Shown here piece after piece: positions 7,637 through 13,828 of a stretch of DNA of 13,828 nt. Position 1 is the first letter of the stretch. Each line of letters starts with the position of its first letter. A model generated the notes under the pieces. The model was not told the origin of the DNA. It did not search any database and saw only the letters and a program-made list of their open reading frames with translations. Source of the DNA: DASVDK01 sp036381125 [NCBI: Thermodesulfobacteriota bacterium] (GTDB taxonomy: Bacteria > DASVDK01); the NCBI GenBank assembly GCA_036381125.1, contig DASVDK010000139.1:1-13828 (forward strand), read 5' to 3'. The translations under genes were made by a program, and so were the position numbers.

Positions 7637-7692
7637 CACGGTCTGCTTGCGCGGCGCGGCCGGCCGTGCGACGCTGGGCGCGAAGGCAACCC

Positions 7693-7697
7693 GGGAG
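7693..7697 (+). promoter_or_regulatory. Ribosome binding site of the ATP-grasp-like gene
   Basis: GGGAG lies 6 nt before the GTG at 7704. This favours that codon over the TTG 57 nt upstream in the same frame, which has no such site and would reach into the short divergent spacer. Confidence 0.6.
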
Positions 7698-7703
7698 CGC
7701 GCG

Positions 7704-8762
7704 GTGACGGGGCGGCAGCTTCGGCGCAGCCTGAGGATCGGCATCGAGGACGCGCTGCACAACCTCCGATACCGGGGGGCGAGCCGTCGGATCCTCGTGG
7801 TCCGGCACGCCGCCCGGTACAAGCGCATCTACAACTCGCACTTCCTCGCGTGGGTGCGCGCCCGCGTGCCGGCCGCGGCGCCGCTCTTCGAGCTCCGCCG
7901 GCTCCCGTGCCGCGTCGGCGACTGGCGGCGCTACGCGCTCTTCCTCCCCTGGCTCCAGGATCCCCTGAACCGGTTCGACCCCCGGCTCTATCGCTACGCG
8001 AGGGAGATGGAGCGCCGGTGCGAGGCGCTCGGGATCCCCGTGGTGAACCCGGTCGACGCGCTGTCGCGCTCGGTCAAGTCGGTCGCCTCGGAGATCATGA
8101 GGGCCGCGGGCGTGCGCACGCCGCGCATGGTGCCCATCGCGGACGTCGAGGTGTTCCGGAAGACGCTCGGCGGCCTGGCGCCGCCCGTCATCGTCCGCGA
8201 GGACGACCGCCATCGCGGCGCGTCGTTCCTCGTCGAGCGCCCGGCCGACCTCGATCGCGTGCCGTTCGAGCGGCTCTCCGCCCCGGTCGCCGTCGAGTTC
8301 GTCGACGTCCGCAGCCCCGACGGGCTCTACCGCGCCTATCGCTACCTCGCGATCGGCGACCGCGGCTTCCCCTGCTTCCTCGCCGTGTCACCGTCGTGGG
8401 AGGCGCGCGGCGAGGACGAACCGACGGACACGGCGGTCGAGGAGGAACTCGCGTTCCTGAACGGGGACGACCCGAACCACGACGCCTTGCAGCACGCGCG
8501 ACGCGCGCTCGGCTTCGACATCGTCGCCTTCGACTACAGCTACGACGCGGAGGGGCGGCTCGTCGTCTGGGAGGCGAACCCGTTCCCGACGATCTGGGGA
8601 CAGGACAACTACCTGGCCTACATGCGCTACGCCGACCCGTTCATCGAGCGGATCTACGTCGGCCTGCTCACCTACTACCTCGAGCGCGCCGGCATGGCGG
8701 CGTCGATCCCGATGCCCGTCCGGGGCGCCGGGGCCGCCCTCGACACCCTCTTCGGCGTCTAG
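7704..8762 (+). CDS. ATP-grasp-like protein of unknown substrate, next to polysaccharide genes
   Basis: This 352-residue soluble protein is read from the GTG at 7704. ATP-grasp enzymes join a carboxylate to an amine or thiol through an acyl-phosphate. Seen here: a central stretch SVKSVASEIMRAAGVRTPRMVPIADVE resembling the lead into the ATP-grasp domain, a strand PPVIVREDDRHRGASFLVE in the position of the nucleotide-binding loop, and a C-terminal DIVAFDYSYDAEGRLVVWEANP (about 272-293) that matches the metal-binding DxxxxDGxLxVxExNxxP pattern, with E290 and N292 as likely ligands. The N-terminal third is unassigned. It diverges from the flippase/glycosyltransferase pair across 91 bp. It may modify the glycan or make a building block; the substrate cannot be inferred. 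Confidence 0.65.
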   Translation: MTGRQLRRSLRIGIEDALHNLRYRGASRRILVVRHAARYKRIYNSHFLAWVRARVPAAAPLFELRRLPCRVGDWRRYALFLPWLQDPLNRFDPRLYRYAREMERRCEALGIPVVNPVDALSRSVKSVASEIMRAAGVRTPRMVPIADVEVFRKTLGGLAPPVIVREDDRHRGASFLVERPADLDRVPFERLSAPVAVEFVDVRSPDGLYRAYRYLAIGDRGFPCFLAVSPSWEARGEDEPTDTAVEEELAFLNGDDPNHDALQHARRALGFDIVAFDYSYDAEGRLVVWEANPFPTIWGQDNYLAYMRYADPFIERIYVGLLTYYLERAGMAASIPMPVRGAGAALDTLFGV

Positions 8763-8874: not shown

Positions 8875-8929
8875 TGGAAAATGGAAAGACCTGACCCCAT
8901 GGAAAATGGAAAGACCTGACCCCGTGGAA
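8875..8929. repeat. Two tandem 25-bp repeats plus a partial third (REP/RAYT-like motif)
   Basis: A 24-nt sequence at 8875-8898 recurs without change at 8900-8923, one base apart (period 25). A third start, TGGAA at 8925-8929, ends exactly at the stop codon of mgtE. On the - strand each copy begins GGGGTCAGGTCTTTCC and continues into ATTTTCCA. It is clearly A/T-richer than its surroundings. From memory, GGGGTCAGGTCTT-type motifs flank IS200-like/REP-associated tyrosine transposases in many uncultured bacteria; that link is not shown here, as no transposase is in the window. Confidence 0.85.
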
Positions 8930-10331: not shown

Positions 10332-10358
10332 GCCGGGGACCGTGGCACGGTCCCCGGC
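10332..10358. terminator. Perfect 12-bp-stem palindrome between aldo/keto reductase end and mgtE start
   Basis: GCCGGGGACCGT and ACGGTCCCCGGC flank the loop GGC. It starts 26 nt after the aldo/keto reductase stop on the - strand, a fitting place for a terminator, but no T-run follows. Its exact symmetry also fits an intergenic palindromic repeat. The 120-nt gap around it (10262-10383) holds nothing else I can name. Confidence 0.55.
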
Positions 10359-11689: not shown

Positions 11690-12694
11690 TCAGAGGGGGA
11701 CCTCGCGACCGACCCCCCGCGCCTCGGCCAGGCGGACGGCGAGCGTGGCGACGGCCAGGTCCTCGATGGCCGCGCCGACCGACTTGAAGAGCAGCACCTC
11801 GTCCGGCCCGCGGCGGCCTTCGGCTCGCCCCGAGACCAGATCGGCGAGGTCGCCGGCGATGTCCTCGCGGCCGAACGCCCCCTCCCCGATGGGGATGAGG
11901 AGGTCGCCCGCCTCCGCCAGCGCACCCTCGTACGTGTCCACGTACACGCGGGCGCGCCGGATCGCCTCCGTGTCGGCCTCCCGCGTCGTGGGCGTGAAGG
12001 CCCCCACCAGGGCGACGAAGGCGCCCGGCTTGAGGGCCACACCGTGCACGACCGGGGTCGGGCTCGTGGTGGCGCCGACGACGATGTCGGCCTCCGCCAC
12101 GGCCGCGTCCGCGTCGGTCGTCGCCTCGACGACGAGCCCCGGGTGCCTGGCGCGCGCCGCGGCGGCGAAGCGCTCCGCGCTGGCAATCGAGCGGGCGACG
12201 ACGACGACGCGGGTAATCGCCCTGATGCCGAGCATCGCCTCGAGGTGGGACGACGCCTGGACGCCGGCTCCGAGGAGCGCCAGGGTCGAGGCGTCGGCGC
12301 GAGCCAGCCGGGTGGCGGCGAGCGCCGAGGCGGCGGCCGTCCGCAGGCCGGTGAGCCACCCCGCCTCCAGGAGCGCGACGGGGCGCCCGGTTGCCGCGTC
12401 CTGAAGCAGGAAGACGGCGTGGATGAGCGGCAGCCCGCGCGCCGGGTTGCCGGGGAAGACCGAGACGACCTTGGCCCCCGAGGCGCCGCCCCCGGCGCCG
12501 CCCGGTCGCTGCACCGCCGGCATGTACAGGATGACGCCGCCGGCCGCCGCGCCGTCGCCCGGCACCGCCACCGGCAGCCGGACCGGCGCGTCCATCCGCC
12601 CCTCGGCCGAGGCGAGGAACGCCGCCTCGAGCGCGTCGAGCGCGGCGCGGGGGGTCAGCAGGCTCTCGAGATCGGCGCGGGAGAGGACCCTCAC
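11690..12694 (-). CDS. Ornithine cyclodeaminase / mu-crystallin family protein
   Basis: This 334-residue cytoplasmic NAD(P)-dependent enzyme uses a GTG start at 12694, giving VRVLSRADLESLLTPRAALDALEAAF, the usual N-terminus. Upstream codons in frame overlap livF and look non-coding. Family marks: AKVVSVFPGN with the substrate-binding Lys (about 75), LEAGWLTGLRTAAASALA with R118/T119, the dinucleotide site LLGAGVQASSHLEAML (about 140-155) and VDTYEGALAEAGDL. Members include ornithine cyclodeaminase, alanine dehydrogenase, ketimine reductases and opine-type synthases; function cannot be fixed from sequence alone. It follows livF by 85 nt with a hairpin in the gap and may act on an amino acid imported by that system. 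Confidence 0.9.
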   Translation of the reverse strand: MRVLSRADLESLLTPRAALDALEAAFLASAEGRMDAPVRLPVAVPGDGAAAGGVILYMPAVQRPGGAGGGASGAKVVSVFPGNPARGLPLIHAVFLLQDAATGRPVALLEAGWLTGLRTAAASALAATRLARADASTLALLGAGVQASSHLEAMLGIRAITRVVVVARSIASAERFAAAARARHPGLVVEATTDADAAVAEADIVVGATTSPTPVVHGVALKPGAFVALVGAFTPTTREADTEAIRRARVYVDTYEGALAEAGDLLIPIGEGAFGREDIAGDLADLVSGRAEGRRGPDEVLLFKSVGAAIEDLAVATLAVRLAEARGVGREVPL

Positions 12695-12721
12695 GACCCG
12701 GCCCTCGCGTCTGCCCGGACC

Positions 12722-12740
12722 GCGCCGGCAACGCCGGCGC
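12722..12740. terminator. Hairpin between livF and the cyclodeaminase-family gene
   Basis: A perfect 8-bp stem, GCGCCGGC / GCCGGCGC with loop AAC, begins 40 nt after the livF stop on the - strand. It may end or attenuate the liv transcript before the next gene. There is no T-tract. Confidence 0.4.
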
Positions 12741-12779
12741 TCCGGCCGGCTCGGGCGAGGAGAGCGGCCGTCGCCACGA

Positions 12780-13487
<708 letters not shown>

Positions 13488-13496
13488 CGGCAGTTT

Positions 13497-13501
13497 CCTC
13501 C
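13497..13501 (-). promoter_or_regulatory. livF: livF Shine-Dalgarno at the end of the tandem repeat array
   Basis: GGAGG on the - strand lies 9 nt before the GTG at 13487. Its first G (13501) is the terminal base of the 125-bp repeat. The 8 nt after CCGTTG read GAGGAAAC here, ACGGAAGC at 13625-13618 and AGGGAGGC at 13750-13743, so the site aligns with repeat sequence. Confidence 0.65.
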
Positions 13502-13828
13502 AACGGCTCGCGGCCGGCGTCCGCTCCGGCCGGGGTGAACCCGGCCTCCGCTCGTCGGCGCGCCTGCGGCGCACCAACCGCCTGAGGCCGCTCGCCTCTG
13601 CGGCGCCTCACGGCGCCGCTTCCGTCAACGGCTCGCGGCCGGCCTCCGCTCCGGCCGGGGTGAACCCGGCCTCCGCTCCTCGGCGGCCCTGCGGGCCGCC
13701 AACCGCCTGAGGCCGCTCGCCTCGGCGGCGCCTCACGGCGCCGCCTCCCTCAACGGCTCGCGGCCGGCCTCCGCTCCGGCCGGGGTGAACCCGGCCTCCG
13801 CTCGTCGGCGCGCCTGCGGCGCGCCAAC
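13501..13828. repeat. Tandem array of a 125-bp hairpin-rich repeat (at least 2.6 copies)
   Basis: Units start at 13501, 13626 and 13751 (each CAACGGCTCGCGG); the third is cut by the window end after 78 nt. Units 1 and 2 differ at 10 of 125 positions with no indels; units 1 and 3 differ at 2 of 78. Each full unit has three hairpins. The first is a 7-bp stem (13528-13546, loop GTGAA) identical in all copies. The second is an 8-bp stem with loop TGC (13557-13575, 13682-13700, 13807-13825). The third is an 8- or 9-bp stem with loop TCAC (13600-13619, 13724-13745). Seven of the 10 differences between units 1 and 2 fall in stem arms or at the stem closing pair. Short open frames through it have no recognisable domain. 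It fills the gap upstream of livF. Confidence 0.92.

What the first reader, a model, noticed from the sequence alone, without database searches (positions are those of the whole stretch)
13501..13828. Unusual 125-bp tandem, multi-hairpin array directly upstream of livF
At least 2.6 units of exactly 125 bp, about 92-97% identical and without indels, each with three stable stems, fill the space where livF would normally sit close to livG. The constant period, the conserved loops (GTGAA, TGC, TCAC) and the lack of unique spacers fit neither CRISPR nor a coding repeat. It may be an amplified REP/BIME-like element, a structured leader or processing region in the liv mRNA, or a small-RNA cassette.
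Basis: partly seen in the sequence, partly recalled or inferred. Interest (0 to 1): 0.7.

Follow-up and report, generated by a model that had tools for sequence, protein, structure and literature searches.

The report
Tandem hairpin repeat beside livF gene
A non-coding stretch of GC-rich DNA, made of near-identical 125-letter blocks that each fold into several hairpins, sits just in front of a transporter gene in an unidentified bacterium; it looks like the palindromic spacer repeats known from many bacteria, though no relative of this particular sequence was found where we looked.

Summary
Positions 13501-13828 hold 2.6 head-to-tail units of exactly 125 bp, without indels and 92-97% identical. 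The array touches the Shine-Dalgarno sequence of livF and runs off the end of the window, so 2.6 is a minimum. It is non-coding: the period is not a multiple of three. In one hairpin two adjacent base pairs are swapped on both arms, and one further change is unpaired on the + strand but G-U on the livF-sense strand; with three copies this is only suggestive. No relative was found: exact 22-mer in 84,980 genomes and IMG/VR, blastn in plasmids and phages, several searches of 95 genomes of the likely phylum. No whole genome is held for the window, so copy number, upstream gene and transcription could not be tested. Best reading: a tandemly amplified, BIME-like intergenic palindromic repeat. REP/BIME membership is not shown: the GTAG tag is absent; a CGTC tag occurs in 2 of 3 units (CCTC in the third), but other CGTC-family features fail. 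A livF leader RNA is less likely: most relatives keep livG tight against livF, and their larger gaps lack such hairpins. Interest is modest.

The parts
13501..13625 (.). unit 1 of the 125-bp array (next to livF)
   Evidence: TRF and alignment
13626..13750 (.). unit 2; carries the swapped stem GGCGGCCC-TGC-GGGCCGCC
13751..13828 (.). unit 3, first 78 bp; cut by the end of the window
13528..13546 (.). hairpin A of unit 1, GGCCGGG-GTGAA-CCCGGCC (7 bp), repeated at 13653-13671 and 13778-13796
13557..13575 (.). hairpin B of unit 1, 8 pairs, loop TGC; one C.A on + = G.U on -; repeated at 13682-13700 and 13807-13825, two pairs changed on both sides in unit 2; preceded by CGTC (units 1, 3) or CCTC (unit 2)
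13584..13598 (.). hairpin C of unit 1, GAGGC-CGCTC-GCCTC (5 bp), repeated at 13709-13723
13600..13619 (.). hairpin D of unit 1, 8-bp stem, loop TCAC; 9-bp stem in unit 2 at 13724-13745
13497..13501 (-). likely Shine-Dalgarno GGAGG of livF, overlapping the first base of the array
   Evidence: read
12780..13487 (-). livF-like branched-chain amino acid ABC ATPase, GTG start at 13485-13487
   Evidence: Pfam ABC_tran; LivF relatives up to 71% identity

Best explanation
The array is a tandemly amplified intergenic palindromic repeat of the BIME kind. A 125-bp module of four GC-rich hairpins was multiplied head to tail in the spacer just upstream of livF. Shown: exact period, no indels, non-coding, some stem-preserving differences, position against the livF ribosome-binding site. 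Inferred: copies arose by slippage or unequal recombination; hairpins are kept by templated correction between arms or by selection on pairing; if the spacer lies inside a liv transcript, the stack of hairpins forms a self-contained structured segment that separates livF from upstream genes and may slow exonucleases or favour Rho or RNase action, as proposed for REPs in other bacteria. No trans-acting factor is shown.
For: Period, copy number and identity; hairpins beyond shuffles and local enrichment; two pairs changed on both sides in hairpin B plus a change tolerated as G-U on the livF strand; 7 of the 10 differences between units 1 and 2 fall in stems (58 of 125 columns), and six of these seven are swaps or a gain of pairing; slid pairings give 33-49% paired cells against 98.7%; the array folds within itself and leaves the livF start mostly open, 0.71-0.87 unpaired when one or more whole units are included. 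BIMEs are described as tandem modules of palindromes whose pairing is preserved by complementary changes (passages of PMC2817692). Y1 transposases, the Pfam family that includes RAYTs (recalled), occur in 33 of 95 genomes of the phylum, among them G007, G008 and G010, which hold the closest solute-binding proteins; some have other hairpins on both sides.
Against: Only one site is known and its genomic copy number is unknown; no further copy in the window. No GTAG tag; the CGTC tag has about a 9% chance of falling beside one of four hairpins. The covariation rests on 3 sequences; 64 of 500 shuffles reach it, and the two changed pairs are adjacent and could be one event. Hairpins near the phylum's Y1 genes are unrelated in sequence. 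No relative found in 95 genomes of the phylum, so dispersal is not shown. Uni-directional REPs are reported close to the 3' end of the upstream gene (PMC3733652 section 15); here the array touches the 5' side of livF and the upstream gene is not seen.
Confidence: 0.6

Rival explanations
1. A structured leader or processing segment specific to the liv mRNA, acting on livF expression.
For: It abuts the livF Shine-Dalgarno; unit 1 folds better on the livF-sense strand (z -4.3 against -3.0); one change is G-U only on that strand.
Against: In 89 of 110 loci a livG-like ORF ends within 160 nt of livF, and none of the 7 gaps of 40 nt or more holds a perfect stem of 7 bp; 9 of 106 loci have such a stem anywhere in the 350 nt upstream. 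With whole units included the livF start is 0.71-0.87 unpaired, at or above five other starts of the window. No Rfam match.
Confidence: 0.15
2. A neutral local satellite: a chance GC-rich palindromic spacer that was duplicated by slippage, with no function and no dispersal.
For: Single known site; no relative found; another unrelated tandem hairpin spacer repeat (44 bp, 4.3 copies) exists in a genome of the phylum (L169).
Against: Two-sided changes in hairpin B and the extra pair of hairpin D in unit 2 keep or improve pairing.
Confidence: 0.17
3. Assembly artefact at a contig end.
For: The array runs to the last base of the window; contigs often end in repeats (general knowledge).
Against: Units 1 and 2 differ at 10 of 125 places, four of them forming two swapped pairs, which sequencing or assembly errors would hardly make.
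Confidence: 0.05
4. A small-RNA cassette or other trans-acting RNA array.
For: Stable repeated hairpins.
Against: No promoter-like or terminator-like site in 12500-13828 by simple consensus of the sigma-70 type, which says little for this organism; no Rfam match.
Confidence: 0.03

Closest known systems
BIME-2 / atypical BIMEs (tandem REP modules)
   Same: Head-to-tail modules holding several palindromes in a spacer; complementary changes between copies (passages of PMC2817692).
   Different: No GTAG tag, no known genome-wide copies, no transposase in the window; the module has four different stems rather than one REP in alternating orientation.
CGTC-tagged REP superfamily
   Same: Hairpin B: CGTC directly before an 8-bp stem in units 1 and 3, and CCTC, a variant named by the authors, in unit 2.
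   Different: First two stem pairs are G-C not A-T, loop is 3 not 4-5 nt, tail AAC not CCA; genomic abundance unknown.
Hairpins beside Y1 transposase genes of the same phylum (L218, L219, L224)
   Same: Perfect GC-rich hairpins outside the transposase gene, in related genomes.
   Different: Other sequences and loops, arranged around a transposase gene, not tandem.
44-bp tandem hairpin array in L169 (5171-5358)
   Same: Tandem palindromic repeat without an open frame through it, in a genome of the phylum.
   Different: Period 44, 4.3 copies, unrelated sequence.

Membership tests
REP/BIME (GTAG superfamily) | GTAG motif at one end of the palindrome | tested here: not met
   No GTAG or CTAC in any unit; degenerate forms listed by the authors were not all tested
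REP/BIME (GTAG superfamily) | high copy number across the genome | not testable with these tools
   No genome held for the window; no further copy in 13.5 kb
REP/BIME (GTAG superfamily) | cognate RAYT transposase | not testable with these tools
   Own genome absent; Y1_Tnp in 33 of 95 genomes of the phylum, with other hairpins nearby in the 12 loci looked at
REP/BIME (GTAG superfamily) | tandem modules with several palindromes in a spacer | tested here: met
CGTC REP superfamily | unpaired CGTC (or TGTC/CCTC) next to the stem | tested here: met
   Hairpin B: CGTC in units 1 and 3, CCTC in unit 2; about 9% chance of one CGTC beside four hairpins
CGTC REP superfamily | A-T pairs at first and second stem position, loop 4-5 nt, CCA tail | tested here: not met
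   GG/CC, loop TGC, tail AAC (criteria from section 6)
CRISPR | short repeats separated by unique spacers | tested here: not met
   No unique spacer; the whole 125-bp unit is repeated
coding repeat | period a multiple of three and one open frame through the array | tested here: not met
   125 = 3x41+2; the + ORF 13462-13710 ends inside the array
known structured RNA | match to an Rfam model | tested here: not met
   0 matches at gathering score

The most novel reading that the evidence does not exclude
The four-hairpin 125-nt unit is a new mobile or regulatory repeat family of a deep Methylomirabilota-like lineage, multiplied inside an amino-acid transporter operon and kept foldable by selection in the mRNA, so that array length tunes livF output.
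Probability: 0.1. Interest if true: 0.5.

Novelty: new member of a known kind. Interest (0 to 1): 0.27.

Why it matters
If the unit is dispersed, it would be a new palindromic repeat family in a poorly known lineage (the related Rokubacteria are called as-yet uncultivated in the abstract of PMC8780371, seen), and its array length could serve as a strain marker. If confined to livF, array length could act as an expression dial for one transporter subunit. Either way the kind of element is familiar.

Tried and rejected
Exact 22-mer of the unit in 84,980 genomes and in IMG/VR: 0 matches. blastn of the array in plasmids and phages: none at E 1e-5. blastn in six genomes first: 1 weak match. blastn in 95 genomes of the phylum of G002: 25 listed weak matches (27-113 nt) in 19 genomes; the six I printed look by eye like chance hits in GC-rich protein-coding DNA, the other 19 were not looked at one by one; at most the 7 best candidates per genome were scored. 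In the phylum of G121, 0 of 188 genomes (drawn from a larger group) at E 1e-6, with 3 candidates scored in each of the 20 rows shown; the tool warns that an empty answer without a positive control shows nothing. 0 of 1 genome in the phylum of G003.

A covariance model of the unit (3 sequences, so nearly a sequence model) gave matches in 5 of 95 genomes at E 0.002-0.01 per genome. That is more than the one or so expected at this threshold, but the model's E-values are rough by a factor of about five and the unit is 81% GC; four of the five overlap long open frames that look like real genes (two of these at the same place of one gene), the fifth is an unrelated hairpin-rich stretch beside a tRNA-Pro. 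A 30-base core with up to 3 mismatches: 0 of 95.

Ideas rejected: CRISPR, coding repeat, tRNA array, intrinsic terminator (none found), RBS-masking hairpin (start 0.01 unpaired only if the array is cut to about 20 nt, 0.41 at 30 nt). My first livG screen was faulty because its motif excluded livG; redone.

Literature: five searches; one search held no paper, and only the 10, 8 and 8 listed were seen, of 2,360, 66 and 34. None listed describes this repeat. PMC3733652 was read in abstract and sections 5, 6 and 15, PMC2817692 in 12 of 29 passages; other papers only as search listings.

Full report
What is there. Positions 13501-13828 carry a tandem array with a period of exactly 125 bp, 2.6 copies and no indels. 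The three copies are 92.0%, 97.4% and 93.6% identical in pairs; units 1 and 3 are the closest pair although unit 2 lies between them. GC is 81%. The array ends at the last base of the window, so the number of units is a minimum. At the other end it touches the likely Shine-Dalgarno sequence GGAGG (13497-13501, - strand) of a livF-like gene whose GTG start is at 13485-13487. Upstream genes, livG among them, are outside the window.

Structure. The consensus of the three copies has four hairpins per unit: GGCCGGG-GTGAA-CCCGGCC, GGCGCGCC-TGC-GGCGCGCC, GAGGC-CGCTC-GCCTC and GCGGCGCC-TCAC-GGCGCCGC. Perfect stems of 7 or more exceed dinucleotide shuffles (9, 1 and 6 of 2000 shuffles reach the counts in units 1, 2 and the part of 3); for stems of 8 or more the figures are 120, 0 and 58. 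Unit 1 folds with z -4.3 on the livF-sense strand and -3.0 on the other. The z of -6.2 for the whole array is inflated, because repeated palindromes also pair between copies. Perfect stems of 8 or more number 4 in 328 nt here, 11 in the remaining 13.5 kb, and 129 in 400 kb sampled from six genomes of the phylum. Raw folding energy is not exceptional for this GC-rich contig: 1 of 535 other windows of 125 nt folds as low.

Differences between copies. In hairpin B unit 2 has two neighbouring pairs swapped on both arms, so the stem stays perfect, and unit 1 has one change that breaks a pair on the + strand but leaves G-U on the livF-sense strand. In hairpin D a T.T mismatch of unit 1 (+ strand) is a G-C pair in unit 2. 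Of the 10 differences between units 1 and 2, 7 lie in stem columns, which are 58 of 125. With three sequences this is suggestive only: 64 of 500 shuffles reach the covariation seen, while sliding the partners drops paired cells from 98.7% to 33-49%. The neighbouring swap could be a single templated event inside the hairpin.

Not coding, not a known RNA. The period is 3x41+2, so no protein could repeat in register. Rfam has no match at gathering scores in the window, ARAGORN no tRNA, and simple scans no promoter or terminator of the sigma-70 type near it.

Whose DNA. No whole genome is held for the window. The peptide-transporter genes point to the phylum of L033 (record titled Candidatus Rokuibacteriota): solute-binding protein 69% to G007, 70% to a part held in G008, 67% to G010; among the loci fetched around such hits DppB reaches 75%, DppC 70% and OppF 70%. 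LivF reaches 71%. MgtE is less telling: 70% in G083 of that phylum but 68% also in G121 of another. Other window proteins were not placed. The lineage is thus probably related to, but not represented in, the held genomes. The phylum is inferred from record titles; the search tool names no groups.

Search for relatives. No relative of the unit was found: exact 22-mer in genome contigs and IMG/VR, 0; plasmids and phages, 0; 95 genomes of the phylum by blastn, 19 with weak matches at E 1e-3, of which the six I printed look like chance matches in coding DNA; by covariance model weak matches in 5 of 95, against about one expected, of which four overlap long open frames and one lies beside a tRNA-Pro; by 30-base core with 3 mismatches 0 of 95; 188 genomes of the phylum of G121, 0 at E 1e-6. 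Among 187 loci (1.61 Mb) 18 tandem-repeat rows of period 35-300 with two or more copies were found, some describing one array twice; none folds as strongly per base on the strand given (best -0.55 kcal/mol per nt, inside an open frame; units 1 and 2: -0.58 and -0.64). The nearest in kind is a 44-bp hairpin array without an open frame in L169.

Position. In 89 of 110 loci with a LivF relative the nearest upstream ORF is a livG-like ATPase whose stop lies -20 to +160 nt from livF; in 17 the nearest ORF did not pass my motif and in 4 there was none. None of the 7 gaps of 40 nt or more has a perfect stem of 7 bp, and 9 of 106 loci have one anywhere in the 350 nt upstream. A hairpin leader at livF is therefore not a general feature. 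With one or more whole units included, the start codon of livF is predicted 0.71-0.87 unpaired and the Shine-Dalgarno 0.30-0.50; five other genes of the window give 0.11-0.70 for the start and 0.11-0.67 for the bases 6-14 before it, though one of these starts (mgtE) is doubtful. Masking of the start appears only when the array is cut to 20-30 nt.

Comparison. BIMEs are tandem modules of palindromes with inter-palindrome segments, and preserved pairing through complementary changes is reported for them (passages of PMC2817692). REPs fall into GTAG- and CGTC-tagged superfamilies (PMC3733652, abstract and sections 5, 6, 15). The array has no GTAG. Hairpin B is preceded by CGTC in units 1 and 3 and by CCTC, a variant named by those authors, in unit 2, but its stem ends, loop length and tail do not fit the CGTC families; one such tag beside four hairpins has about a 9% chance. 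Y1 transposases are in 33 of 95 genomes of the phylum; of the 12 loci looked at, several have GC-rich hairpins of other sequence beside the gene. So the array resembles a BIME in anatomy, but membership in a REP family is not established.

Verdict. A real, non-coding, tandem multi-hairpin spacer repeat, best read as a BIME-like element of unknown spread; a liv-specific leader, a neutral satellite and an assembly artefact are less likely. The decisive facts, copy number in its own genome and the sequence beyond the window's end, were out of reach.

Noticed in passing
window 8875-8924: Two tandem copies of a 25-bp A-rich sequence (TGGAAAATGGAAAGACCTGACCCC) just downstream of mgtE in an otherwise about 72% GC contig; reminds me (from memory) of ends of mobile elements. 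A 10-base core matched 14 of 225 loci, by eye none with the full 25-bp form; 0 in IMG/VR.
   Followed up: partly
window 10332-10358: Perfect 12-bp hairpin GCCGGGGACCGTGGCACGGTCCCCGGC overlapping the first GTG of the mgtE ORF; a likelier start, MTIDLSP, lies 87 nt further in, so the hairpin may be in the mgtE leader.
   Followed up: no
window 7647-8762: 371-aa protein next to glycosyltransferase and flippase genes with no Pfam match at E 0.001.
   Followed up: no
L169 5171-5358: 44-bp tandem hairpin array without an open frame through it, 4.3 copies, 94% alike, in a genome of the phylum.
   Followed up: no
L218, L219, L224 (both sides); L220, L223 (one side): Y1 transposase genes with short perfect GC-rich hairpins beside them (for example CCACGGGCTTACGCCCGTGG), possibly a REP/RAYT system in this phylum.
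   Followed up: partly
L048 6710-7075: Tandem array with palindromic parts (period about 54 and 106), no open frame through it, shortly after livF in Streptococcus sp. Marseille-Q0941.
   Followed up: no
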